From positions 62,001 to 126,000 of the forward strand of contig JADZCT010000029.1 in NCBI GenBank assembly GCA_020851455.1: 64,000 nt of DNA, in the 5' to 3' direction. The notes below the pieces were generated by a model, which saw nothing but the letters and a program-made list of their open reading frames with translations, did not search any database and was not told the origin of the DNA. Within the stretch, counting starts at the first letter, position 1; each line of letters opens with the position of its first letter. The position numbers were made by a program, and so were the translations under genes. The DNA comes from Gemmatimonadaceae bacterium. Its GTDB lineage: Bacteria; Gemmatimonadota; Gemmatimonadetes; Gemmatimonadales; Gemmatimonadaceae. Positions 11,069 through 24,340 of the stretch are shown in pieces.

Positions 11069-12106
11069 GTGAGCCTGCCAGCCGCAGGGCTGCGGCTGCC
11101 GCGGTTCAGGGTGCTTCTGCCCCGGACGCGGCTTGCGTACGTCCACCTGCGCAATCTCTTCACCGACGCCAAGCGCGACCGCAAGGCGCGCGTGTTCGGT
11201 TACGTGTGCGTGTGGCTTCCGGACGACTTCCTGCTCTTCTACCTGCAGGAAGGCGAGGTCGTGAATGTGACGGCGAGCCCGGACGGCCAGCGCTTCCGTC
11301 CGATGGCCATTGCCGATGCAGTCGCGATGGTTCCGCGCGAGGCTGAGTACGGCGAGGTCTGCTTCCATGAAGCGGACGACGAGCAGCTGGCGATGATGTT
11401 CTGGACACAGTCGGGCGACGCGGCTCCATGGCCGCCGGACGTCAAGGGCGACGACGCGGACGCCGTGCTCCGATTCATGCGCGCGACCATGCACGACGGC
11501 GTGCTTGAAGTGATCTCCGACGAATCGCGCAGCTACGCGGTGGTGCGGGCCGGCGAGGTGGTGCGCGGTTATTTCAGCGACGATGTCTTCGGCGCGCCCG
11601 AAGCGCAATTGCGCGCATCGCTCTCGCAGCCGGGCCGCTGGGTCAGGGTGCGTCTCTGGCCGGTACCAGCGGCGCTGCCGGTTCAGGCAGCGCCGGCGCT
11701 CATCCGGGCGTACCGTGAGCTCATCATCGGCATAGTGCGACGGCTCCGCACGAGCGGCGTGGGCGGCGCGGCCGAGATCGCCGAGACGGCCCGCCGCAAC
11801 CTCGTTCACAAGCATCCGGCGCTGGACAGGTTTGGCGTGGACCCCGACCCGCTGCCGGCGGCGGTGAACGTGACGTCAACGCTCTCGTTCGGGCGCGCTC
11901 CTGCGTCCGCCACCAGGGACCCGATCTGCGACGCGGCGTCGCTGAGCGCCGCGATAGGCGCGTGGATCGCGGAACTGCTCTGGACCGCGCCGCCTGGCGA
12001 TGGAACGCCGTCCGAGCGTTTTCTCGAGGACGTGCTGCGCGAGCGCAGGCACATGTACCAGGTCGCCGGCCTGCTGGACTCGCTCCCCTGGCGCCTCTTC
12101 GTGTGA
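11069..12106 (+). CDS. Uncharacterised cytoplasmic protein coupled to rsmI
   Basis: 345 residues from GTG 11069. I do not recognise the family. There is no signal peptide or membrane span. The N-terminal third carries aromatic-rich beta strands (Phe-Gly-Tyr-Val-Cys-Val-Trp and Phe-Leu-Leu-Phe-Tyr-Leu), the middle is mixed, and the C terminus is helical with Glu-Arg-Phe-Leu-Glu-Asp-Val-Leu. rsmI starts inside its stop codon (GTGA overlap at 12103), so the two are translationally coupled. The start could lie a few codons away. Confidence 0.7.
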   Translation: MSLPAAGLRLPRFRVLLPRTRLAYVHLRNLFTDAKRDRKARVFGYVCVWLPDDFLLFYLQEGEVVNVTASPDGQRFRPMAIADAVAMVPREAEYGEVCFHEADDEQLAMMFWTQSGDAAPWPPDVKGDDADAVLRFMRATMHDGVLEVISDESRSYAVVRAGEVVRGYFSDDVFGAPEAQLRASLSQPGRWVRVRLWPVPAALPVQAAPALIRAYRELIIGIVRRLRTSGVGGAAEIAETARRNLVHKHPALDRFGVDPDPLPAAVNVTSTLSFGRAPASATRDPICDAASLSAAIGAWIAELLWTAPPGDGTPSERFLEDVLRERRHMYQVAGLLDSLPWRLFV

Positions 12107-12933
12107 CCGGCGCGCGCGGGGGGCTCTTCGTCGTCAGCACGCCTATCGGCAACCTGGGCGACATGAGCGCCCGCGCGATCGAGACGCTCCGCTCGGCCGA
12201 CCTGGTACTCGCAGAAGACACGCGCCACTCGGCGATCCTGACGTCGCACTTTGGCGTTCACTCGCGCGTGGAGGCCTATCACGAGCACAACGAGGCGAAG
12301 GCCACGCCGCGGGTGCTGCAGCGGCTTGCCGGCGGAGCCACGGTGGCGCTCGTATCGGACGCGGGAACGCCGCTCCTGTCGGATCCGGGCGCACGGCTGG
12401 TGCGCGCTGCGATCGAGGCGGGCTTCCGTGTAACCCCCGTGCCGGGCGCGTCGGCGATGCTGGCGGCGCTGGTGGGGTCTGGCCTGCCGATGGATCGCTT
12501 CACGTTCATGGGCTTTGTGGGACGGAAGGGGCGTGACCGCTCGGAGGCCGTGCGCGGCATAGTCGAGTCGAGCGTGACGACGGTGATCTACGAGGCGCCG
12601 GGGAGGGCCGCCGCGCTGCTTGCGGCGTTGCGGGATGCCGGCGCGGGGGGCAGGGCGGCCGCAGTGGCGCGCGAGCTGACCAAGCAGTTCGAGGAGTTCC
12701 GCCGCGGCACCGTATCGGAACTGGCGGAGGGGTGCGCCGCGGAGCCGCCGCGCGGCGAGGTGGTGATCGTGGTCGCGGGCGCCGCCGAGGCGCCGGAGCC
12801 GGACGAGGCGGCGCTGTCCCGACGGGTGGGCGAGTTGCGGGCCGCCGGATTGAGCGCCCGGGAGGTCGCCCGCGTACTTTCTGATGAGATGGGAGCGTCG
12901 CGCAACACCGCCTACCGGCTGGCACACGAATGA
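12103..12933 (+). CDS. rsmI: 16S rRNA (cytidine-1402 2'-O)-methyltransferase
   Basis: 276 residues from GTG 12103, which overlaps the previous stop by four bases. RsmI methylates the ribose of C1402 in the 16S P-site decoding region using SAM. The tetrapyrrole-methylase fold shows Ser-Thr-Pro-Ile-Gly-Asn-Leu-Gly-Asp, Ala-Glu-Asp-Thr-Arg, Ser-Asp-Ala-Gly-Thr-Pro and Pro-Gly-Ala-Ser-Ala. A C-terminal HTH-like module (about 230-275) ending Asn-Thr-Ala-Tyr-Arg-Leu is typical. The next gene overlaps its stop (ATGA). Confidence 0.96.
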   Translation: MTGARGGLFVVSTPIGNLGDMSARAIETLRSADLVLAEDTRHSAILTSHFGVHSRVEAYHEHNEAKATPRVLQRLAGGATVALVSDAGTPLLSDPGARLVRAAIEAGFRVTPVPGASAMLAALVGSGLPMDRFTFMGFVGRKGRDRSEAVRGIVESSVTTVIYEAPGRAAALLAALRDAGAGGRAAAVARELTKQFEEFRRGTVSELAEGCAAEPPRGEVVIVVAGAAEAPEPDEAALSRRVGELRAAGLSAREVARVLSDEMGASRNTAYRLAHE

Positions 12934-13664
12934 AGATCCGCAACGGCGCGGCGCTTGCCGCGGCTGTCCTGAGCGTTGGCCTGGCGGCGCGGGCATGGCG
13001 CGCCGCGGAGGCGCGTCCTGTCGGCCGGCTGACGGGGGCAGCGACGCCCCCGGCGCCCCGGCTTGCCATCGCGCGGCTTCAGTACGACGGCGGCGGTGAC
13101 TGGTACGCGAATCCATCGAGCCTGCCCAACCTCATCAAGGCCATTCGGGAACGGACGTCGTTCGCGATTGACCCAAACGAGGGACGCGTAACCCTGATGG
13201 ACGAACGGCTGTGGGAGTATCCGTTCATCCACATGACTGGGCACGGGAACGTGACTTTCTCGGATGCCGAGGCCGTGCGGCTGCGCGAATATCTTGCGCG
13301 GGGCGGCTTCCTGCATGTGGACGACAACTACGGGCTCGACGAGAGCATACGGCGCGAGATGAAGAAGGTGTTTCCGGACCGCGAGTTGGTTGACGTACCG
13401 CTGTCGCACCCCATCTATCACGTGGTGTACGACTTCCCGAAGGGCGTACCGAAGATTCACGAGCACGACGCGAAGCCGGCGCGCGGGTTCGGGATTTTTC
13501 TGGGCGACCGCCTGGCGGTGTACTACACATGGGAGAGCGACCTTGGCAACGGGTGGGAGGATGTCGGGACGTACCCGAGCGATCCGCCTGAGCTGCACGA
13601 GCAGGCACTGAGGATGGGGGTGAATCTGTTCACGTACGCGGTCACGAGCCGCCCGACGCCATGA
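12930..13664 (+). CDS. Exported DUF4159 protein
   Basis: 244 residues. A Sec-type hydrophobic start (about 5-25) precedes a DUF4159 domain with a GATase-like Rossmann shape: Leu-Ile-Lys-x-Ile-Arg-Glu-Arg-Thr-Ser, Tyr-Pro-Phe-Ile-His-Met-Thr-Gly-His-Gly, the Arg-Gly-Gly-Phe-Leu-His-Val-Asp-Asp strand, and Gly-Trp-Glu-Asp near the end. DUF4159 genes usually lie beside MoxR/DUF58/VWA envelope clusters; here only the DUF4175-like and TPR genes are at hand. Starts by ATGA overlap with rsmI and ends by ATGA overlap with the next gene. Function unknown; probably periplasmic. Confidence 0.88.
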   Translation: MKIRNGAALAAAVLSVGLAARAWRAAEARPVGRLTGAATPPAPRLAIARLQYDGGGDWYANPSSLPNLIKAIRERTSFAIDPNEGRVTLMDERLWEYPFIHMTGHGNVTFSDAEAVRLREYLARGGFLHVDDNYGLDESIRREMKKVFPDRELVDVPLSHPIYHVVYDFPKGVPKIHEHDAKPARGFGIFLGDRLAVYYTWESDLGNGWEDVGTYPSDPPELHEQALRMGVNLFTYAVTSRPTP

Positions 13665-16600
13665 CGCTGCTCCAGATCGTGGACCGGGAGCGGCGCGGCG
13701 CACTGCGGCTGCTGCAGTTGTCGGTGCTGGCGCGCTCGGCGGCCGCCTTGGTGGCAGTGCTGTCGCTCGGCGCGTTGGCGCTTGGCGGTTCGCACTGGAT
13801 CGTGCTACCGCGCGTCGTGCCGTTCGTGATCTGGGGCGGAGCGCTGGGCCTGGCCGGGTGGATCGTTGCGCGGTACGTCCGAGCGGTGCGTCGCGAGGCG
13901 TCGCCGGTGGCGATTGCGGGTGCGGTGGAGAGTGAGCAGCAATTGCGCCGCGGCTCGCTGCGCGGCCTGGTGGAGCTGGCTGACAACCGGACCGCGTTCG
14001 TGCAGCGCGCGTCCGAGCGGCTCGCCGAGCGGCTCGCGCCGCTGCCGGCACCGCTCGCGCCGGGGTTGCGGCGTACGCTGGCTCGGGGCGTGCTGCGCGG
14101 CGGGGCTGTTATCGTCGGCGCCGCGGTAATCGCGACCATCGTTGCCGCGCGTTCCGGAGACGGCTGGCGCGCCCTCGCGCACCCCGTGGACGCCTGGCGC
14201 GGGGCGCTGTTGTCGCCGATCAGCATGGTTGACGTGCCGACGCGGCTGCTGCGCGGGTCGTCGTTCAGGCTGACGATTCGTGCGGACGGCAGGCAGGCCG
14301 TGCGGCTCATGCGTCGGAGCACAGGGAACGCGTGGGTGGAGACGCCGCTGTCGCTCACGGCCGGGACGGTCACCACCGAACTGGGACCGCTCGACGCCGA
14401 CCTCACGCTCGTGGCGAGCGACGGGCGGGCTGCGAGCGACACGGCTGTCATCCGCGTTGTGGACCGGCCGTTCCTTGGCGATGTCTCGGTGACGATGTCG
14501 TTCCCGGCGTACCTCAAGCGGGCGCCGGAGACGGTGCCCGCCGACGCGATGCTGCGGCTGCCAGAGGGGACGTCGCTCGCGATCCAGGGGCACTCGTCGG
14601 AAGCGCTCGCAGCCGTGATGCTCGCGCGCGGGCCGGATTCGCTCCGCCTTGCCCCGGACGGACGGCGTTTCAGCGGCCGGTTCCTCCCGGTGGCAAGCGG
14701 CAGCTGGGAGTGGGTGGCCCGCGGCGTTACGACGCAGATCGCGGACGTCCCGCCGCCGCTTTCGATCGAGGTGGTGCCGGACTCCGCCCCGGTGGCCGAA
14801 ATCATGGCTCCGATGGCTGACTCGCTAGTGGAGCCCGACGGGAGGGTGGCCGTCGAACTGCTTGCGAGCGACGACCACGCGCTCGAGTCGGTGGCGCTGC
14901 GCCTCGTCCGCGTGGACGCGGCGGGGCGCGCAGACGAGCCGTCCGTCCAGGTGCTCGGCGGTGCAGGACTCGCGGACTGGGCCGGATCGTTCACGCTCGA
15001 CCTTGCGAAGTTCCGGCTTGGCGCGGGGGACGCTGTGCGGTTGCAACTGGTGGCGTTCGACGCTTCGCCGAAGCGCATGCGGGGGGCAAGTCGCGAGGTG
15101 ACGCTCAAGGTGCCGGCCACGGAGGAGCAGCGGTCGGCGGCGCGCGCGGCGGCTGACTCCGCGGCGGCGCGCGTAGCGGCGCTCTCCAAGGCAGTCGCCG
15201 ACCTGCAGCAGCGCACGGAGCAGGCGGCGAACCAGCGTGCCGCGCAGGGGGCCGGCCAGCAGCCGATGGAGTTCGACAAGGCGCAGCAGGCTCAGAAGCT
15301 GGCGCAGCAGCAGAAGGAGATGTCGCAGCAGGTGCGCGACGTATCGCAGGCCGCGAAGGACATCGAGAAGCGACTCCGCGATGCCGGCGCCCTCGATACG
15401 TCGCTGGCGCGCCAGCTCCAGCAGGCGCAGGACCTCATGCGGCAAGCGCTGACGCCCGAGATGCTCGACGCGCTCAAGAAGCTCGAGAACTCGTCGCAGC
15501 AGCTTGCCGGCGACCAGGCACGGCAGTCGCTGGGCGAGCTTTCGGAGCAGCAGAAAAAGATGCGCGAGGCGCTCGAGAAGAGCACCGAGATCCTGAAGCG
15601 CGCCGCGCTCGAGGGCGCGATGCAGACGCTGAAGGACGAAGCGAACGAACTCGCCAGACAGCAGCGCGCCCGCGCCGACAGCGGGCGAAACGCGACTCCG
15701 GACGAGCTGAAGCGGCTCGACCAGCGCACTCAGCAACTGTCGAAGGATCTGGAATCGCTGCGCGACAAGCTCGAGAAAGCCCAGGCGGACACCGCCGCGA
15801 AGCAGGCGAACGCCGCGCTCGACGAGGCGCAACGCGCCGCGGAGGCGCTCGATCGCGCGATGCAGAACAAGAGCCAGCAGCAGGGGCAGCAGCAGGCGGG
15901 CGCGCAGGGCCAGCAAGGTGGCGCACAGCAGCAGGGTGGCGCACAGCAGCAGGGTGGCGGGCAGGGGGGGCAACAGCAAGGCCAGCAGGGGCAGCAGCAG
16001 GGTGGCGCGAAGGGGCAGCAGGGCGGTCAGTCGCAGGACGGGAAACAGCAAGGCGCTCCGAACGCCGGAGACGCGGCCGACGCCCTGCAGCGGGCAGCCG
16101 ACGCCCTCGCCGAGGGTCGGAAGGCGCAGGTCGAGGAGTGGAAGAGCGAGGTGACTGGCGAGATTGACCAGTCGCTGCAGGAAATGCTGCAGCTTGCGCG
16201 CCAGCAGGACGACCTTGCCAGCAAGGCGCGCCGGGACCCGGGGAACGCTACGCTGCGTTCCGAGCAGGGCGCGATCGAGCAGGGCGTCGAGAAGGCTGCA
16301 CAGCGGCTGGCGAACGAGTCCAGGCGGTCGGCGCTGGTTTCGCAGGGTTCGCAGCGGGCGATGGAGGAGGCGCGGCAGCGTGTATCGCAGGCGGCGCGGG
16401 AAGCGGGGGATCCTCAGGCGATGAGCGCTGCGCCAGCGAGCATGGCCGATGCCGCTGCCGCGCTCCGGCAGGTGGCCTCGGCGCTGGCGCGCGACCGGGA
16501 GCGGGCCAATACGTCGCAGTCCGCCTCCGGGCTGGGTGAGTTGCTTGCGCAACTGCAGCAGCTTGCCCAGCAGCAGGGCGGGCTGAACGGACAGATGCAG

Positions 16601-17077
16601 GGGTTGCTGCAGATGGCGCAGCAGGCACAGGCAGGCCAGGCTGCAGAGGGTGTTCGCACCCAGGCGCGAGAGTTGAGCCGCGCCCAGCGGGATGTGGCGC
16701 AGCAGCTCGCGGAAGTCGGCGATGCCGACCAGTCGGGCCGTGCGGCCGAGCTTGCGCGCGAAGCGAAACAACTTGCGCAGGCGCTCGAGCAGGGCGCCGT
16801 GGATCCCGCCGTGCTCGAACGGCAGCAGCGCCTGTTCAGGCGGATGCTCGACGCCGGCCGCACGCTCCAGAACGAAAAGCAGGACGAGTCGGCCAAGCGC
16901 GAGTCGAAGCCCGGCGACCAGTCGAACCCGTTCCTTCCTCCCGGCGGGCCGGTGGCGGGCCGTTCGGCGCTGAAGTACCGGGTTCCCGAGTGGAACGAGC
17001 TCCGCGGCCTGAGTCCCGAGGAGCGGCGTCTCGTCATTGACTACTTCCGTCGCCTCAACGGCGACACCCGCCCCTGA
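13661..17077 (+). CDS. Giant DUF4175-like membrane protein with Gln-rich coiled coil
   Basis: 1138 residues. Three membrane segments (about 21-42, 52-74, 146-163) are followed by beta-rich domains (about 170-480) and a very long predicted coiled coil from about 490 to 1090. At about 740-800 it breaks into a Gly/Gln-rich low-complexity stretch. This is the layout of DUF4175 proteins, which occur in envelope operons with MoxR/DUF58-type genes; no enzyme motif is visible. The tail ends Glu-Arg-Arg-Leu-Val-Ile-Asp-Tyr-Phe-Arg-Arg-Leu-Asn. Overlaps the DUF4159 gene by four bases. It may form a large periplasm-spanning rod; that is inference. Confidence 0.85.
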   Translation: MTLLQIVDRERRGALRLLQLSVLARSAAALVAVLSLGALALGGSHWIVLPRVVPFVIWGGALGLAGWIVARYVRAVRREASPVAIAGAVESEQQLRRGSLRGLVELADNRTAFVQRASERLAERLAPLPAPLAPGLRRTLARGVLRGGAVIVGAAVIATIVAARSGDGWRALAHPVDAWRGALLSPISMVDVPTRLLRGSSFRLTIRADGRQAVRLMRRSTGNAWVETPLSLTAGTVTTELGPLDADLTLVASDGRAASDTAVIRVVDRPFLGDVSVTMSFPAYLKRAPETVPADAMLRLPEGTSLAIQGHSSEALAAVMLARGPDSLRLAPDGRRFSGRFLPVASGSWEWVARGVTTQIADVPPPLSIEVVPDSAPVAEIMAPMADSLVEPDGRVAVELLASDDHALESVALRLVRVDAAGRADEPSVQVLGGAGLADWAGSFTLDLAKFRLGAGDAVRLQLVAFDASPKRMRGASREVTLKVPATEEQRSAARAAADSAAARVAALSKAVADLQQRTEQAANQRAAQGAGQQPMEFDKAQQAQKLAQQQKEMSQQVRDVSQAAKDIEKRLRDAGALDTSLARQLQQAQDLMRQALTPEMLDALKKLENSSQQLAGDQARQSLGELSEQQKKMREALEKSTEILKRAALEGAMQTLKDEANELARQQRARADSGRNATPDELKRLDQRTQQLSKDLESLRDKLEKAQADTAAKQANAALDEAQRAAEALDRAMQNKSQQQGQQQAGAQGQQGGAQQQGGAQQQGGGQGGQQQGQQGQQQGGAKGQQGGQSQDGKQQGAPNAGDAADALQRAADALAEGRKAQVEEWKSEVTGEIDQSLQEMLQLARQQDDLASKARRDPGNATLRSEQGAIEQGVEKAAQRLANESRRSALVSQGSQRAMEEARQRVSQAAREAGDPQAMSAAPASMADAAAALRQVASALARDRERANTSQSASGLGELLAQLQQLAQQQGGLNGQMQGLLQMAQQAQAGQAAEGVRTQARELSRAQRDVAQQLAEVGDADQSGRAAELAREAKQLAQALEQGAVDPAVLERQQRLFRRMLDAGRTLQNEKQDESAKRESKPGDQSNPFLPPGGPVAGRSALKYRVPEWNELRGLSPEERRLVIDYFRRLNGDTRP
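15917..15952 (+). repeat. Tandem 18-base repeat in the Gln-rich linker
   Basis: GGTGGCGCACAGCAGCAG occurs twice in a row (15917-15934 and 15935-15952), then a degenerate third start. It encodes Gly-Gly-Ala-Gln-Gln-Gln units, in frame, inside the low-complexity linker of the DUF4175-like protein. Confidence 0.85.
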
Positions 17078-17105
17078 GGATCGCGCGGCGCGGGTGGCGA
17101 TAGTG

Positions 17106-18938
17106 ATGCGGGCAGGGGAGGCATCGTGGCGGCTGGTGCTTGCGCGCGTAGCTGGGCGCACGGCTCTGGCTGTGCGCTGCGCATCCGCAATGGCTTCGGT
17201 GGCGGCAGTTGCCGTGGTTGCAGGGCCGGCGTCTGCGTCCGCGGCCGCGCAGGCGCAGCAGGCGCAGCAGGCGCAGCAGGCGCAGCAGGCGCAGCAGGCG
17301 CAGCAGGCGCAGCAGGCGCAGCAGGCGCAGCAGGCGGCGATAGGCAAGGCGGTGGACCTCGAACAGTCCGGGCGCTGGGTTGACGCGATTGCCGCGTGGC
17401 GCGGCGTGCTCGCGGCCGGCGAGGTGGAGCAGGCCGCGCTTGGCCTCGAACGTGGGTTCTCCCAGCTTGGCCAGGAAGACTCCATCCGCGCCCTGGCCGA
17501 CAGCCTGGTGGCAACGCGGCCCGCCAACCGCGTGCTGCGTTCGATCCAGATCAGGACGCTCCGGTCGCTCGGCCGGCTCGACGACGAGGGGCGAGCGTTC
17601 GAGGCGTGGGTTGCGGCGGCGCCGGGCGAGGCAGCTCCGTACCAGGTGTACGGGAACCAGTTGCTGATGGACGGGCGTGCCGCGCGCGCCGATACGATCC
17701 TCCGGCGCGGCGTGCAGCAAGCCGGGGCAGCGGCGTTCCAGCTCGAGCTGGCGCAACTCTACGTGTCGCTTGGGCGCTGGGCGCGCGGGGCTGCGGCGTG
17801 GCGTGAGATCGTCGCCGCGGAGCCGTACATGGACCAGTCGGCGCTGTTCTCGCTGGGGGCGGTGCCTGCGGGCGAGCGCGATTCCGTGCGCGCGGCTCTG
17901 TCGGCGGCGCCGATGTCGGCCGGCGCGCGGAAGGTTCTGGGTATGCTCGAACTGCAGTGGCTCGATGCGAGGGAGGGATGGCGGATCCTCTCCGCGCTGG
18001 GCGTCGCCGATTCGGCCTATGCCACCTGGGCGGACTTTGCGTCCGGGGCCGAGCGGCAGGGCGCGTGGATACCGGCGCGCGAAGCGTTGCTGAGAATGTC
18101 GTCCACGAAGCCGGAACTGTCGGTGCTCCTGCGCGCCGCCGCGGCCTCGGTGTCGGGCGGCGAGCCAGCGGCGGCCCTTCCAATACTCGCAGGCGCGCGG
18201 CGGCTGGCCGACGGAACCGCGTTGCGCACGCGGGTGGTTCCGCTCGAGGTCCGAGCGTTGACGACGATGGGCCGGGCCGGCGAGGCGGAGGCGCTCGTGC
18301 GCAAGGATGGCGCGCAGGCCGATGAAGGGACGAGGCAGGCGTACGCGCGCCAGATCGCGTGGGGCTGGGTGCGCGCCGGCGAGGTGGAGAAGGCGCGCGC
18401 CGCGCTGGCCGGTGCGAGCGCCGACGACGACGAAGAAGTCTCCGGGTGGATTGCGCTGTTCGAGGGCAACCTCGTGCAGGCACGTGCCGGACTGCGTCGC
18501 CCGGCAGATGCCACGCCGGATGTCGTCACCGCGATGGCGATGCTTGGGCGAACCCGCGCCGACACCAACGCTGACGTTGGCGCCGCATTCCTCGCGTTGG
18601 CCCGCCGTGACACTGCGGCGGCGGCCAACGGGTTCGAGCGCGCGGCGGGCGAGCTCGGTGGAGCGGCACCGCTGATGCTTGCGTTCGCGGCGCGCCTGTG
18701 GGCGGCGAAGAAGTCGGATGCGGCGGCGATCGCGCTGTGGGGCCGGATTGTCGAGCGGTACCCGAAATCGCCAGAGGCGCCCGAAAGCGACCTCGAGTGG
18801 GCGCGCACGCTCCGGCGCAAGGGTGACGCAAGTGGCGCGCGGGAACGCCTGGAGCACCTGGTAATCAGCTATCCTGAGAGTGCGCTGGTTCCTCAGGCGC
18901 GGCGTGAACTGGAATCGTTGCAGGGGGGTGCGTCGTGA
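17106..18938 (+). CDS. Exported TPR protein with Ala-Gln-Gln repeat
   Basis: 610 residues from ATG 17106 (GTG 17094 is also possible), 28 bases after the previous gene. A Sec signal of about 45 residues ends in an Ala-rich stretch, then nine Ala-Gln-Gln repeats, then helical TPR-like repeats to the end, with a clear canonical pair in the last 80 residues (Pro-Lys-Ser-Pro-Glu-Ala, then Tyr-Pro-Glu-Ser). Ala/Leu-rich helices and conserved Gly/Trp positions in between suggest about ten repeats. It is probably a periplasmic scaffold for the DUF4159/DUF4175 set; the next gene starts by GTGA overlap. Confidence 0.8.
   Translation: MRAGEASWRLVLARVAGRTALAVRCASAMASVAAVAVVAGPASASAAAQAQQAQQAQQAQQAQQAQQAQQAQQAQQAAIGKAVDLEQSGRWVDAIAAWRGVLAAGEVEQAALGLERGFSQLGQEDSIRALADSLVATRPANRVLRSIQIRTLRSLGRLDDEGRAFEAWVAAAPGEAAPYQVYGNQLLMDGRAARADTILRRGVQQAGAAAFQLELAQLYVSLGRWARGAAAWREIVAAEPYMDQSALFSLGAVPAGERDSVRAALSAAPMSAGARKVLGMLELQWLDAREGWRILSALGVADSAYATWADFASGAERQGAWIPAREALLRMSSTKPELSVLLRAAAASVSGGEPAAALPILAGARRLADGTALRTRVVPLEVRALTTMGRAGEAEALVRKDGAQADEGTRQAYARQIAWGWVRAGEVEKARAALAGASADDDEEVSGWIALFEGNLVQARAGLRRPADATPDVVTAMAMLGRTRADTNADVGAAFLALARRDTAAAANGFERAAGELGGAAPLMLAFAARLWAAKKSDAAAIALWGRIVERYPKSPEAPESDLEWARTLRRKGDASGARERLEHLVISYPESALVPQARRELESLQGGAS
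17253..17333 (+). repeat. Nine copies of a 9-base repeat (GCGCAGCAG)
   Basis: Nine perfect head-to-tail copies of GCGCAGCAG encode nine Ala-Gln-Gln units just after the signal peptide of the TPR protein. Because the unit is nine bases, copy-number change would keep the frame and only alter linker length. Confidence 0.97.
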
Positions 18939-20251
18939 TCTGGTGGATGAGCGATGGGGCCAAGACGCCGCAGCGGGGCGGACGGCGGTTCCCGGCAGCG
19001 CTGTGGCTTGCCGTACTGGCCTCGACGCTGGTGTCGGGCGCGGTACGCGCGCAGAACCTCTTGGTCCCGATGGACGAGGCGCAGCAGAACCACCTGCGTG
19101 CGTACGGGCTTACGTACTTCGCCCTGAAAGAAGGCGACCGCGCGGAATGGTGGCTCAACTACCGCGGCGGCAGCTTCCTGCTGCCCGACAACCCAGGGCT
19201 GCGCCGGAAGGCCGCGCTCGACGGGGTGACGGTGCAGCCGATTGACGCCGCTGGCGTTGCGGAGGCGCGGCGCGAGATCGCGCAGAGCAACATGGACGCG
19301 ATCCCGCTGGAGAAGGCGCCGCACGTGGCGATCTACTCTCCGCCGAAGTCGCCGCCGTGGGACGACGCCGTGACGCTGGCTCTCCGGTACGCCGGGATTG
19401 ACTACACGCAGATCTGGGACGACGACGTGCTCACGGAGGACCTGTCGAAGTACGACTGGATTCACTTGTTTCACGAAGACTTCACCGGGCAGTTCAACAA
19501 GCTTTACCTCACCTACCGGAATGAACCGTGGTTCATCGAGGAGCGCGATCGCGACCTCACCACGGCTCAGCGTCACGGGTACGCCACAGTGCCCGCGCTG
19601 AAGAAGGCGGTCGCCGCGCGGCTGCGCGATTTCGTTGACCGCGGAGGGTTCATCTTCGCGATGTGCGGCGCCACGGAGACGCTCGAACTCGCGCTCGCGG
19701 GGCAGAACGTGGACATTGCCGCCCCGTTTCTCGACGGCACGCCCATAGACCCGGACGCGGACGCGAAGATGGACTGGACCAGGTCGTTCGCGTTCCAGGG
19801 AGCGCACATCGAGATGAACCTCGGCGTGAACGCGATGAGCGACATTGACGGCCACCAGGTGAACGTTCCATCGAGGCGTCAGAGTCTCGGGACCTTCACG
19901 CTCTTCAACTTCTCGGCGAAGTTCGACCCCGTGGCGACGATGCTCGTGCAGGATCACCGCACCGTAATCCCCGACTTCTACGGCGTGACCACGTCGTTCG
20001 TGAAGGCGCGCCTCAAGCCAGGCGTTACCGTGCTTGCCACGGAGGAGGGCACCCCGTGGGTGAAGTACATCCACGGCGACTATGGCAAGGGATCGTGGAC
20101 CTACCTTGGCGGGCACGACCCCGAGGATCCGCAGCACAACATCGGCGCGCCTCCGACCGATCTGGCCCAGCGGCCGAACTCGCCGGGCTACCGCCTCATC
20201 CTCAACAACGTACTTTTCCCGGCCGCGAAGAAGAAGCCGCTGAAGACGTGA
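18935..20251 (+). CDS. Exported GATase-like protein of unknown function
   Basis: 438 residues from GTG 18935 (ATG four codons on is possible). A Sec signal ends at about Ala-Arg-Ala-Gln40. The body looks like a class I glutamine-amidotransferase/ThuA-type Rossmann fold: Trp-Ile-His-Leu-Phe-His (175-180), an Ala-Arg-Leu-Arg-Asp-Phe-Val-Asp-Arg-Gly-Gly-Phe helix-strand unit (228-239), then Phe-Ala-Met-Cys-Gly-Ala-Thr-Glu, placing Cys244 at the nucleophile elbow. The helix-strand unit resembles that of the DUF4159 protein upstream. Some databases may label such proteins asparagine synthetase B; no such domain is visible. The helicase follows by GTGA overlap. Confidence 0.75.
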   Translation: MIWWMSDGAKTPQRGGRRFPAALWLAVLASTLVSGAVRAQNLLVPMDEAQQNHLRAYGLTYFALKEGDRAEWWLNYRGGSFLLPDNPGLRRKAALDGVTVQPIDAAGVAEARREIAQSNMDAIPLEKAPHVAIYSPPKSPPWDDAVTLALRYAGIDYTQIWDDDVLTEDLSKYDWIHLFHEDFTGQFNKLYLTYRNEPWFIEERDRDLTTAQRHGYATVPALKKAVAARLRDFVDRGGFIFAMCGATETLELALAGQNVDIAAPFLDGTPIDPDADAKMDWTRSFAFQGAHIEMNLGVNAMSDIDGHQVNVPSRRQSLGTFTLFNFSAKFDPVATMLVQDHRTVIPDFYGVTTSFVKARLKPGVTVLATEEGTPWVKYIHGDYGKGSWTYLGGHDPEDPQHNIGAPPTDLAQRPNSPGYRLILNNVLFPAAKKKPLKT

Positions 20252-22836
20252 GGAGCGCGCTTCCCGCGAAGGCAGCGGCCGCGGCAGGGCCGCCGGCATC
20301 GCGGCTTTCCCCGACGGCAGCCCGCGCCATCCGCACGGCGATCGTCCTCGCGGGCGGGCGCGAGGTGTGTTTCACCTGCGAGGTGGACGGCTCGGGGGGC
20401 GTCGTCGCCGCCCGCGTCGTGGCGCGCGGCGACGCGACTAGCGTGCTGGCCCTGCCCGGGTTTGCGAAGCGCGGAGAAATTCTCGTTCACAACCATCCTT
20501 CCGGCGTTCTCGATCCGTCGGGGCCCGACCTTGACGTCGCCGCGCGCATGCACGACGAAGGGGTCGGGTTCGCCATCGTGGATAATGACGCGACGCGGTT
20601 CTACGTCGTGGTCGAAGTTCCGGAAGCGCCAGAGATCGTCCAACTGGATGGGGGCGAGGTTGCCTCGCTCCTGGGGTCCGATGGACCTGTCGCCGCCCTG
20701 CTTGGGCGCTACGAGGACCGTCCGGCGCAGCGGGAGATGGCCAGCCGCGTCGCTCGCCTCTACTCGCTGGGCGGAATCGGGCTCATCGAGGCAGGCACCG
20801 GCGTTGGCAAGTCGCTCGGGTACCTCGTGCCGGCTCTGCGGTGGGCGGCAGCCAACGGAGAACGCACGATCGTGAGCACCAACACGATCACGCTGCAGGA
20901 GCAGCTCGTAGGAAAGGACCTGCCGTTCCTCGCCGAGGCGCTCGACGATCAGCCGGTACGCTTCGCGCTGCTCAAGGGCTGGCGCAACTACGTGTGCCTG
21001 CAGCGGCTGGAGCAGGCGCGCAGCGCGGCGGGGTCGTTGTTCGAGCCGGAGCTGATGGGTGAGTTCGACGCCATTGACCGGTGGGCCGCGCGCACGAGCG
21101 ACGGGTCGCTCGGCGACCTGCCGGCGCCCCCGCGCGCGGAAGTGTGGGACGAGGTTGCCGCAGAATCGGACCTCTGCACGCGGCTCAGGTGCCCCTACTT
21201 CGATCGCTGCTTCGTGTTCAGGGCGCGCCGGGCGGCTGCGCAGGCCGATGTCATCGTCGTGAACCATCACCTGCTGATGGCCGACCTCGCGGTGCGCCGC
21301 GCGTCGCAGAACTGGGACGACGCCGCGGTGCTGCCGTCGTACTCGCGGCTGGTGATTGACGAGGGGCACCATCTCGAGGACGCGGCTGCCTCGCACCTTG
21401 CGAGCAGGGCGTCCCGGCGCGGCGTGCAGCGGCTGCTCTCCCGCATCGAGCGCAAGGGCAGAGGGCTCCTGCCCGCGCTCGAGACGATGCTCGGGCGGTC
21501 GAACGACCTTCTGTCGGTAGCGAGTCTCGACTTGGTGCGGGTGCGCCTCTACGGCACGCTGCAGTCCGCGCGGCAGAGCGCCGAGCGGCTGTTCGACGTG
21601 CTCGACGGCTGGATGGCGTCGCAGCCGGACTCGCAAGTGCGCCTCACCGACGCGTTCGACGACGAAGGCGTCTGGCGCGCCGGGCTCGGCGACGCGCTCG
21701 ACGGCCTCCTTCGCGAGCTGGACGCGCTTGGCGACGGACTCACGCTCGTGCGTGACCGCGTCGAGCTCGATGAATCGCGCGCCGAGGAACTGGCGCCGCT
21801 GATGGGCGAACTGCGCGGCGTGATTCGCCGGCTCGAAGGTGCGGGCGACGCGCTGCGCGGCGCGCTGAGGCCAGATGGCGGCGAGCACGAGCGGATCCGC
21901 TGGATCGAGTCGAAGGGCTCGGCCGGGTCGTCGGGCGGCAATGCCGGGGCGGGCGCTGGCCGCCAGCGGCAACTCGGCGTGGCCAGCGTTCCGCTGGATC
22001 TCGCGCCCATCCTCCGCGACGACCTCTTCCGTAAGGTTGACACCTGCGTCGTGACGAGCGCGACGCTTGCCGTTGGCGACGGCTTCGGCTTCATCGCGCG
22101 GCGGCTCGGGCTCGACCAGGACGACGTCGAGCCGGACACTGCGATCCTCGGGTCGCCGTTCGATTTCGCCGCCCAGGCCGTTCTTGCGATCCCCGACGAC
22201 CTCCCCGCGCCGGCGCAGGGCGACCGCGCGCACGCGGCGCGCACCGCCGAGGTGGCCGCCGACCTCATCCGCCTTGCCGGAGGAGGGGTGTTCGTCCTGT
22301 GCACGAGCCATCGCGACGTGCACGACATCGCGCGGCTGTTGCGCGAGGGCGGGGCCGGTCGCGCAGCGGGCCCACTCCTCGTGCATGGCGAGGACGGGCG
22401 CGACCAGATGCTGCGGCGGTTCCGCGACCATGGCGACGCCGTGCTCGTGGGTACGGCATCGTTCTGGGAAGGCGTGGACGTCGCGGGCCGGGCGCTCCGC
22501 GGGCTGGTGCTGGCCAAGATTCCATTTCGCGTTCCCACCGAGCCGGTCACTGCGGCGCACTGCGAGGCAATCGAGGCGGCGGGACGGGATGCATTCGCCG
22601 AGTACATGGTGCCGCACGCAGCGCTGCGCCTCAAGCAGGGGTTCGGCCGCCTCATCCGTTCCACGCGAGACCGGGGCGCGGTCGTGATCTGCGATCCGCG
22701 CGTCCTGAGGCGCGGGTACGGGGCGTCGCTGCTGGCGGGCCTTCCGCCGGCAAAGCGCCTGCAGGGCTCATGGGCGTCTCTCCGCCCGCAGCTTGCGGCG
22801 TTCTACGGGGAGTCCGATTCGTCGGATGAGGGGTAG
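20248..22836 (+). CDS. JAB/RadC-like metalloprotease domain fused to DinG-type Fe-S helicase
   Basis: 862 residues from GTG 20248 (GTGA overlap). Residues about 25-125 form a JAB/RadC-like domain with the full JAMM pattern: His81-Asn-His83, Ser91 and Asp94. From about 160 an XPD/DinG superfamily 2 helicase follows: Walker A Glu-Ala-Gly-Thr-Gly-Val-Gly-Lys-Ser (181-189), four Cys for a 4Fe-4S cluster (250, 310, 315, 321), Asp-Glu-Gly-His (371-374, in place of DEAH), motif IV-VI including Gly-Phe-Gly-Arg-Leu-Ile-Arg. The helicase unwinds DNA 5' to 3'; the role of the JAB domain is unknown. Long DinG homologues often carry an N-terminal exonuclease, which is replaced here. Confidence 0.9.
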   Translation: MRSALPAKAAAAAGPPASRLSPTAARAIRTAIVLAGGREVCFTCEVDGSGGVVAARVVARGDATSVLALPGFAKRGEILVHNHPSGVLDPSGPDLDVAARMHDEGVGFAIVDNDATRFYVVVEVPEAPEIVQLDGGEVASLLGSDGPVAALLGRYEDRPAQREMASRVARLYSLGGIGLIEAGTGVGKSLGYLVPALRWAAANGERTIVSTNTITLQEQLVGKDLPFLAEALDDQPVRFALLKGWRNYVCLQRLEQARSAAGSLFEPELMGEFDAIDRWAARTSDGSLGDLPAPPRAEVWDEVAAESDLCTRLRCPYFDRCFVFRARRAAAQADVIVVNHHLLMADLAVRRASQNWDDAAVLPSYSRLVIDEGHHLEDAAASHLASRASRRGVQRLLSRIERKGRGLLPALETMLGRSNDLLSVASLDLVRVRLYGTLQSARQSAERLFDVLDGWMASQPDSQVRLTDAFDDEGVWRAGLGDALDGLLRELDALGDGLTLVRDRVELDESRAEELAPLMGELRGVIRRLEGAGDALRGALRPDGGEHERIRWIESKGSAGSSGGNAGAGAGRQRQLGVASVPLDLAPILRDDLFRKVDTCVVTSATLAVGDGFGFIARRLGLDQDDVEPDTAILGSPFDFAAQAVLAIPDDLPAPAQGDRAHAARTAEVAADLIRLAGGGVFVLCTSHRDVHDIARLLREGGAGRAAGPLLVHGEDGRDQMLRRFRDHGDAVLVGTASFWEGVDVAGRALRGLVLAKIPFRVPTEPVTAAHCEAIEAAGRDAFAEYMVPHAALRLKQGFGRLIRSTRDRGAVVICDPRVLRRGYGASLLAGLPPAKRLQGSWASLRPQLAAFYGESDSSDEG

Positions 22837-23464: not shown

Positions 23465-24340
23465 GTGGCTGAGCGTCGCCGCCGTGTGATCAGCACGCCC
23501 GGGGAGAGGCGCGAGTCGCGTTCTCCGGGGTCGGTGGCGCTGTCCATCTCCCTCCACGTCATACTCGTGGTGGTGCTGCTGCAGATCGCGGTCGCGCCGA
23601 TGGACTGGATCAACCTGCTCATGCGGGTCGAGCCGCCGCCGGTCGAGCGAATCGGCTTCCTGCAGTTGCCGCGCGGCGAAGAGACTGGCGAGGCGCCGCG
23701 GCGCGGTGGAAACGACAGGCCAATAACGACCGCGGTTCCTCCGCGGGTTTTCGTGCCTCGGGTGACGCCATCGGAGGCGCCGAGCGGCCTCCCGTCCATT
23801 CCGGTGTCGCCCCCGCGCACGGCGCCCGACCTCGGCACCGGTCCGCTCGTAGGCGGAGGAGGGGACACGCGTGGCGTGCGGCCCTCGTACGCCGACCCGA
23901 GGCTCTGGACGCCCGTGGCGCCGGAGGTCACGGCGCCGCTTACGTACAGTGAAAAGGCCGACAGCGTGATGGCGCCGATCTACCGCATGATTGCCGACTC
24001 GATGAAGGCGGCGATGGCGGCAGGGCGCGACCCGACGGACTGGACCTTCAAGGTGGGCGGGCAGAAGTTCGGGATGGACCAGAAGTTCATCCGGCTCGGG
24101 CCCGTTTCGATCCCAACTGCTGCCCTGGCGTTCCTGCCGCTGAACGTGACGGGGAACCCGTCGTTGATTGACCGCGACAGGCGCCTTGCGGCCATGCGGT
24201 CGGAGATCATGGAGCAGGCAGCGCGCGCCTCGCGCGACGACGACTTCAAGCGGGCGGTGCAGGCGCTCCGTGAGCGCAAACAGAAGGAGCGCGACGACGA
24301 GCGGGCGAAGAAGGCCGCTCCTCCTTCGATCACGCCGTAG
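23465..24340 (+). CDS. Pro-rich single-pass membrane protein, TonB-like layout
   Basis: 291 residues from GTG 23465. A basic N terminus precedes one membrane helix (about 25-46), then a Pro/Arg-rich stretch (about 55-150) and a C-terminal helical domain with a charged Lys/Arg/Glu end. The topology is that of a TonB-like or anchored periplasmic protein, but no TonB C-terminal domain is recognisable. Family unknown. It ends convergently with the LexA-like gene, overlapping by 11 bases. Confidence 0.68.
   Translation: MAERRRRVISTPGERRESRSPGSVALSISLHVILVVVLLQIAVAPMDWINLLMRVEPPPVERIGFLQLPRGEETGEAPRRGGNDRPITTAVPPRVFVPRVTPSEAPSGLPSIPVSPPRTAPDLGTGPLVGGGGDTRGVRPSYADPRLWTPVAPEVTAPLTYSEKADSVMAPIYRMIADSMKAAMAAGRDPTDWTFKVGGQKFGMDQKFIRLGPVSIPTAALAFLPLNVTGNPSLIDRDRRLAAMRSEIMEQAARASRDDDFKRAVQALRERKQKERDDERAKKAAPPSITP

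What the first reader, a model, noticed from the sequence alone, without database searches (positions are those of the whole stretch)
12103..20251. Envelope operon with two GATase-like proteins, a giant coiled-coil membrane protein and a TPR protein
rsmI, DUF4159, DUF4175-like, TPR and a secreted GATase-like gene are nearly fully overlapping, so made together. DUF4159/DUF4175 genes normally accompany MoxR, DUF58 and VWA proteins, none of which is here. Exported proteins plus a rod-like membrane protein suggest a periplasmic complex of unknown role.
Basis: partly seen in the sequence, partly recalled or inferred. Interest (0 to 1): 0.55.

Follow-up and report, generated by a model that had tools for sequence, protein, structure and literature searches.

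The report
Conserved four-gene exported envelope block
Four neighbouring bacterial genes, two of them for exported proteins with an amidotransferase-like shape, travel as one block across a bacterial phylum and beyond, and were lost as one block several times, which points to an undescribed job in the cell envelope.

Summary
rsmI, DUF4159, a DUF4175-like protein, a TPR protein and a GATase-like protein lie in tight array at 12103-20251. The overlapping array does not end there: a JAB-DinG helicase gene overlaps GAT by 4 bp. The functional unit is smaller, the four genes DUF4159-DUF4175-TPR-GAT (12930-20251). GAT is in 218 of 249 genomes of the phylum, and it is present or absent together with DUF4175 in 239 of 249. 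Whole genera lack the block while keeping rsmI and its neighbours, and a tree needs at least 3-4 changes. The same block occurs without rsmI/dinG in Neomarinimicrobiota, KSB1, Krumholzibacteriota and Eisenbacteria. MoxR/DUF58/BatA are absent from the window but present elsewhere in the genome, including one canonical MoxR-DUF58-BatA-DUF4159-DUF4175 set. Drop-outs keep such sets, so this block behaves as a separate, MoxR-free module. Both GATase-like proteins have the class I GATase fold. GAT has an invariant Cys (63 of 63) at the expected elbow and an invariant HDPED motif; DUF4159 has no Cys. Best reading: GAT is an exported Cys-hydrolase held by a membrane-anchored Ig/coiled-coil protein and a TPR scaffold, with DUF4159 as a second, non-Cys subunit. 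The substrate is unknown; peptidoglycan peptides are a guess.

The parts
12103..12933 (+). rsmI, 16S rRNA 2'-O-methyltransferase; conserved left neighbour, not part of the module
   Evidence: TIGR00096 220 bits; kept in 19 of 20 genomes without a GAT hit
12930..13664 (+). DUF4159 protein (PF13709), N-terminal hydrophobic helix, class I GATase-like fold, no Cys in the protein
   Evidence: Pfam 230 bits; model pLDDT 88, 4i66 Z 26.1, HisH Z 10.6; alignment A3
13661..17077 (+). DUF4175-like protein: three hydrophobic segments (about 20-40, 47-70, 144-162), then a region homologous to DUF4175, then a Q/A-rich, coiled-coil-like part with a Q/G-rich insert (736-818)
   Evidence: PF13779 25.6 bits for the N-half; hhalign to L005:13840 100% probability over 488 columns; hydropathy and composition
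17190..18938 (+). exported TPR protein (start uncertain, 17037-17190), AQQ repeat just after the signal-like segment
   Evidence: profile A5 against PDB TPR chains, best 2e-76; repeat 17249-17345
18935..20251 (+). GAT: exported GATase-like protein, invariant Cys244 and HDPED (394-398)
   Evidence: 63 of 63 rows invariant; AF2 pLDDT 88.1, residues 127-434 GATase-like, Z up to 12.7
20248..22836 (+). DinG/XPD-type helicase with N-terminal JAB/RadC-like domain; overlaps GAT by 4 bp; conserved right neighbour, not part of the module
   Evidence: Pfam Helicase_C_2 133.8 bits, RadC 21.3 bits just under its cut-off; kept next to rsmI in several genomes without the block

Best explanation
The block is a four-gene, MoxR-free envelope module. 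Shown: the four genes are kept and lost as a unit, and both GATase-like proteins have the class I GATase fold. Inferred: GAT is exported and works as a Cys-dependent amidohydrolase, with C244 as nucleophile and H394 with E397 or D395 as partners, on an amide bond of an envelope molecule. The DUF4175-like protein is anchored in the inner membrane by three N-terminal helices and reaches into the periplasm with Ig-like and coiled-coil parts. The TPR protein is the adaptor or scaffold for GAT. DUF4159 is a second GATase-like subunit that cannot use a Cys and binds a ligand or metal through its invariant GHG, DD and HEHD residues. No AAA+ ATPase is needed at this locus. The substrate is unknown; peptidoglycan peptides are the first candidate to test.
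For: GAT is in 218 of 249 phylum genomes and the DUF4175 N-half in 210 of 249. Comparing the listed handles gives both 209, GAT only 9, DUF4175 only 1, neither 30; Fisher p 1e-29 ignoring relatedness. Of 16 rsmI regions from genomes without a GAT hit, 14 lack the block with neighbours in place, and 2 are contigs that end inside it. A tree needs 4 changes, and starred branches force 3. Window-type DUF4159 is in 12 of 12 keepers and 0 of 12 drop-outs. The full block is in 14 of 33 non-Gemmatimonadota loci and 11 of 13 Gemmatimonadota loci with at least 7 kb upstream. Over families f2, f4, f5, f7 and f9 GAT keeps 60-64% and DUF4159 53-61% (none in f7) mean identity where rsmI keeps 46-51%. Cys244, H177, H180, E181, D182, H341, H394, D395, E397, D398 and H401 are each 63 of 63. 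The GAT and DUF4159 folds match class I GATases.
Against: No activity, localisation or interaction is shown. The GATase region of GAT also resembles non-catalytic GH42 trimerisation domains. Family f7 has the block without DUF4159 (2 of 2 loci), and many non-Gemmatimonadota loci have GAT without any of the three partners upstream (13 of 33), so GAT does not always need them. H-D-P-E is one residue longer than the usual H-x-E of class I GATases (recalled motif). DUF4175 and TPR are poorly conserved.
Confidence: 0.4

Rival explanations
1. The block is a scattered part of the MoxR-DUF58-BatA (Bat-type) machinery, and one of the genome's MoxR ATPases acts on it in trans.
For: The genome has 4 strong MoxR and 5 DUF58 genes. 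The DUF4175-like protein is homologous to the one in the canonical set of the same genome. One Latescibacterota locus, L124, has DUF4175-GAT followed by MoxR-DUF58 within 4 kb. Drop-outs have fewer strong MoxR genes (1-4) than keepers (3-5).
Against: MoxR or DUF58 lies within the fetched locus in 1 of 80 GAT loci. Window-type DUF4159 is near MoxR in 0 of 12 genomes. Drop-outs keep MoxR-linked DUF4159 genes (11 of their 16 lie within 10 kb of MoxR), and all 24 genomes have MoxR.
Confidence: 0.2
2. GAT and DUF4159 are binding proteins (glycan or peptide recognition in a GATase-like or GIFT-like fold), not enzymes, and the block is a structural envelope scaffold.
For: The nearest folds include GH42 trimerisation domains (Z 12.7) and, for DUF4159, the IFT52 GIFT domain (Z 10.1). 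DUF4159 has no Cys.
Against: GAT has eleven checked His/Cys/Asp/Glu positions unchanged in 63 of 63 sequences across many phyla, typical of an active site.
Confidence: 0.2
3. GAT, or both GATase-like proteins, are metal-dependent hydrolases in a GATase-like fold.
For: Many invariant His/Asp/Glu in GAT and in DUF4159 (GHG, DD, HEHD). Three GAT relatives (L082, L083, L127) begin with Tat-like RRxFL signals, a route used for folded, often cofactor-bearing proteins.
Against: Cys at the strand-helix elbow and His-x-x-Glu before the last helix fit the Cys mechanism.
Confidence: 0.12
4. A housekeeping super-operon (trx-rsmI-...-dinG-FAH) that happens to hold four unrelated genes.
For: Genes overlap on both sides and the order is conserved.
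Against: The four genes leave together while the flanks stay, and they occur together without rsmI/dinG in other phyla.
Confidence: 0.05

Closest known systems
MoxR-DUF58-BatA clusters with DUF4159 and DUF4175 (canonical set in the same genome: L005, G000:C56:54000-73900)
   Same: DUF4159 plus a homologous DUF4175 protein with the same N-terminal membrane and Ig-like region; TPR and GATase-like or peptidase-like exported proteins nearby
   Different: no MoxR, DUF58 or BatA/VWA at the window locus; has GAT, which the canonical set lacks; lost independently of the MoxR-linked sets
Class I glutamine amidotransferase fold (HisH, PdxT, GMP synthetase glutaminase, ThuA-like 1t0b, GatD)
   Same: fold of GAT 127-434 and of DUF4159 44-239; Cys at the elbow and His/Glu before the last helix in GAT
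   Different: exported, extra N-terminal part of about 90 residues, HHED in the loop after a central strand, HDPE instead of HxE; no sequence match in Pfam, NCBIfam or PDB
Hoch_4089 of Haliangium ochraceum (PDB 4i66)
   Same: solved relative of DUF4159: sequence E 3.8e-22 with a profile, Z 26.1, rmsd 1.9 over 186 residues
   Different: several motif residues (GHG, HEHD) are not kept in its alignment; function unknown, and no paper found
LbcA (PA4667), TPR lipoprotein that carries the CtpA protease (role recalled, not read)
   Same: works-like analogy only: an exported TPR solenoid beside an exported hydrolase; PA4667 is among the TPR chains hit by the profile (6e-25)
   Different: generic TPR similarity; GAT is not a CtpA-type protease

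Membership tests
DUF4159 (PF13709) | score over the curated cut-off | tested here: met
   230 bits against 25.9
DUF4175 (PF13779) | score over the curated cut-off | tested here: inconclusive
   25.6 against 27.3 bits for the N-half; full protein no hit at E 0.01; its same-genome homologue L005:13840 scores 34.2, over the cut-off, and aligns to it by hhalign with 100% probability
Class I glutamine amidotransferase (GAT) | class I GATase fold | tested here: met
   VIA-align Z 12.2 to ThuA-like 1t0b (193 residues, 3.3 A), 10.8 to GATase PH1346 1wl8 (181 residues, 3.2 A)
Class I glutamine amidotransferase (GAT) | nucleophile Cys at the strand-helix elbow with His and Glu/Asp near the C-end | tested here: inconclusive
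   C244 follows strand 239-243 and precedes helix 245-255; H394/D395/E397 follow strand 386-391; all 63 of 63. Geometry not measured
Class I glutamine amidotransferase (GAT) | glutaminase activity with a synthase partner | not testable with these tools
   needs biochemistry; an exported glutaminase domain without a synthase would be unusual
Class I glutamine amidotransferase (DUF4159) | catalytic Cys | tested here: not met
   fold met (HisH Z 10.6) but the window protein has no Cys in its 244 residues (sequence; A3)
MoxR-DUF58-BatA (Bat-type) operon | MoxR AAA+ and DUF58 genes at the locus | tested here: not met
   none in the window; within fetched flanks in 1 of 80 GAT loci
MoxR-DUF58-BatA (Bat-type) operon | VWA/BatA protein | tested here: not met
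   no BatA match in the window with local profiles at E 0.01; L005:11734 matches BatA and VWA_2
TPR protein | TPR repeats | tested here: met
   profile A5 hits TPR chains, best 2e-76; no Pfam TPR hit for the single sequence at E 0.01

The most novel reading that the evidence does not exclude
GAT is an active exported Cys-amidohydrolase, present across the FCB superphylum and conserved more strongly than rRNA methyltransferase or glutamyl-tRNA synthetase. With its TPR partner, and in many lineages with DUF4159 and DUF4175, it forms an undescribed envelope-processing machine that dispenses with MoxR. In class f10 it sits directly beside a Mur ligase, so peptidoglycan peptides may be its substrate.
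Probability: 0.25. Interest if true: 0.75.

Novelty: new variant of a known kind. Interest (0 to 1): 0.5.

Why it matters
DUF4159 and DUF4175 clusters are widespread and unexplained. Here a MoxR-free form offers natural drop-out genera, a very slowly changing enzyme-like protein with a testable catalytic Cys, and a partner set that can be deleted gene by gene. If GAT is an exported amidohydrolase, it would give a first biochemical handle on this class of envelope cluster across many phyla that are mostly uncultured.

Tried and rejected
Pfam, NCBIfam and PADLOC scans gave no family for GAT, and PDB sequence searches gave none. PADLOC hits on the dinG gene are generic DinG similarity, so a defence role was not pursued. 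Profile comparison of DUF4159 with GAT aligned only 16 columns at 39% probability, so common descent of the two is not claimed from sequence; the shared fold rests on models. The MurT/GatD idea (GatD appears in the DUF4159 fold list) was set aside for GAT because GAT carries a signal-like segment and the f10 neighbour has ordinary Mur ligase domains. The FCB signature protein PG0081 (Gupta and Lorenzini 2007, PMC1887533, passages read) is 725 aa and therefore not GAT. AdvA of Acinetobacter, a DUF4175-annotated division protein (PMC7481262, two passages read), differs in layout. IFT52 GIFT plus TPR plus coiled coil (PMC10191852, one passage read) is an architectural likeness only. The plasmid collection holds no GAT match. 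Literature: DUF4159 gives 0 papers, Hoch_4089/4I66 0, a combined Gemmatimonadota query 0. Bacteroidota relatives of GAT are, as I recall, often named 'asparagine synthetase B'; the one search for this gave no paper on such a protein in its listing.

Rows dropped or weak: my own gene caller left GAT uncalled in 6 of 80 loci, so the counts come from six-frame profiles (80 of 80). L060 and L072 were miscalled on the wrong strand and are not used as evidence, except that L072 is one row (has) of the tree. Absence in unfinished genomes can be a contig break: G131 and G231 are. Eleven of the 31 GAT-negative genomes are not listed by handle and were not looked at.
Full report
What is there. Around the finding the order is trx, an unnamed gene (u331), rsmI, DUF4159, DUF4175-like, TPR, GAT, dinG, FAH-type hydrolase. 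Four-base overlaps join rsmI/DUF4159, DUF4159/DUF4175, TPR/GAT and GAT/dinG, so the overlapping array is longer than the finding. No MoxR, DUF58 or BatA profile matches in the window.

Where it comes from. The window is part of a 2.96-Mb assembly.

The rest of the genome. It holds 3 DUF4159 genes, 5 DUF58 genes and 4 strong MoxR genes. One region, L005, has the canonical set: exported VWA/GATase-like and TPR/peptidase genes, then DUF4159, MoxR, DUF58, BatA-VWA and a 1253-aa DUF4175. So MoxR-linked and MoxR-free forms live side by side, and the two DUF4175 proteins are homologous over the first about 490 residues.

Conservation in the phylum. GAT is found in 218 of 249 sampled genomes and the DUF4175 N-half in 210 of 249. 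Comparing the handle lists: both 209, GAT only 9, DUF4175 only 1, neither 30. Several exceptions are technical: G166 and G097 carry a DUF4175-like or unlabelled long gene in place, and G131's contig ends. Forty fetched stretches show the order kept over families f1, f2, f4, f5 and f9; f7 lacks DUF4159 and dinG there (L073, L074); f10, in another class, has only TPR-GAT, followed by a Mur ligase.

Loss as a unit. Of 20 listed genomes without a GAT hit, 19 keep rsmI. Sixteen rsmI regions were read. Fourteen lack the four genes: in 6 rsmI is followed directly by dinG, in 2 (family f6) by one or two small genes and then dinG, and in 6 dinG is gone too but the FAH or aminotransferase and later genes follow (in one of these, L178, my caller did not call rsmI). 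Two are contigs ending inside the block. The TPR orthologue is absent from the drop-outs apart from weak generic TPR matches. A tree of four neighbouring housekeeping proteins needs 4 changes of the label, and 3 are forced by starred branches (quick method, 45 rows). In 12 drop-outs and 12 keepers, window-type DUF4159 (over 211 bits) is in 12 of 12 keepers and 0 of 12 drop-outs; other DUF4159 genes remain in 11 of 12 drop-outs, and 11 of those 16 genes lie within 10 kb of MoxR. Hence the block is lost without the MoxR-linked sets. Against a full separation, drop-outs have fewer strong MoxR genes (1-4 against 3-5).

Beyond the phylum. With six-frame profiles, of 13 Gemmatimonadota loci with at least 7 kb upstream, 11 have all four genes, 1 has DUF4175+TPR and 1 TPR only; of 33 others with that room, 14 have all four, 1 has DUF4175+TPR, 5 have TPR only, 13 have none. 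MoxR or DUF58 is in 1 of 80 (L124, Latescibacterota). So the block is not a by-product of the rsmI-dinG neighbourhood, but GAT can also stand without the other three.

Rates. Mean identity to the window over families f2, f4, f5, f7 and f9 is 60-64% for GAT and 53-61% for DUF4159 (none in f7), against 46-51% for rsmI and 53-62% for thioredoxin; gltX is 44% (f2 only). DUF4175 and TPR fall to 30-35%. The two GATase-like proteins are under strong constraint, the scaffold-like ones are not.

Structure. GAT's model (pLDDT 88.1) has a class I GATase-like part at 127-434 (best Z 12.7, rmsd 3.5, 189 residues; ThuA-like 1t0b Z 12.2) and an N-terminal part barely tested by the search. DUF4159's model (pLDDT 88.0) matches its solved relative 4i66 (Z 26.1), then HisH (Z 10.6) and IFT52 (Z 10.1). 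In GAT, C244 lies between strand 239-243 and helix 245-255, and H394-D395-P396-E397-D398 follows strand 386-391; with H177, H180, E181, D182, H341 and H401, the residues C244, H394, D395, E397 and D398 are the same in 63 of 63 sequences. DUF4159 has no Cys but invariant GHG, DD and HEHD. The DUF4175-like protein has three hydrophobic segments in its first 162 residues; the outward direction of the rest is inferred from charge, not shown. GAT's N-end looks like a signal peptide, and three relatives start with Tat-like RRxFL.

How it most likely works. Shown: co-inheritance, block loss, folds (by models), invariant residues. Inferred: export, Cys catalysis, scaffolding and the substrate. My reading is an exported Cys-amidohydrolase (GAT) with a TPR adaptor, tethered near the inner membrane by the DUF4175-like rod, with DUF4159 as a binding or metal subunit. 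I put 0.4 on this as a whole. MoxR in trans, pure binding function and a metal mechanism are the main rivals.

What is known. No paper in the held library mentions DUF4159. DUF4175 appears in one paper, for a different protein. The Bat operon literature (PMC11834572, passages read) ties MoxR, DUF58, VWA and TPR genes to oxidative and heat stress. I file the block as a new variant of the DUF4159/DUF4175 cluster, not as a Bat-type operon, because MoxR, DUF58 and VWA were tested and not met.

Noticed in passing
window 20248-22836: DinG-type helicase with an N-terminal JAB/RadC-like domain (HNHPSG..PSG.D.D); in block-lacking genera g3 and g5 the protein is about 110 residues shorter (732-751 aa), while f6 without the block keeps the long form.
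   Followed up: partly
window 17249-17345: Perfect 9-bp repeat (GCGCAGCAG, about nine copies; AQQ in the protein) just after the signal-like segment of the TPR protein; length change would stay in frame.
   Followed up: no
window 11111-12106: Conserved gene upstream of rsmI (u331) with no Pfam match, overlapping rsmI by 4 bp, patchily kept in the phylum.
   Followed up: no
window 23534-24340: Fast-changing secreted or TonB-like protein without Pfam match that stays at this place in most relatives, with or without the block.
   Followed up: no
L005 2655-17601: Canonical MoxR set preceded by an exported peptidase C13-like gene (353 aa, Pfam E 0.0012, under cut-off) and a TPR protein with a peptidase MA domain.
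   Followed up: no
L004 9168-9935: Third DUF4159 of the genome has a Tat-like RRAFL start and stands beside an amidohydrolase-like gene, with the nearest MoxR on that contig about 17 kb away.
   Followed up: no
L078-L080: In class f10 the TPR-GAT pair is followed by a Mur ligase, with an MraY-like gene (my reading of the sequence) and a polysaccharide flippase-family gene nearby.
   Followed up: partly
L097, L109, L128: In three Cloacimonadota loci GAT is followed by the same two genes: an MlaD-like protein and a peptidase MA/beta-propeller/Omp85-like protein (Pfam run on L097 only).
   Followed up: no
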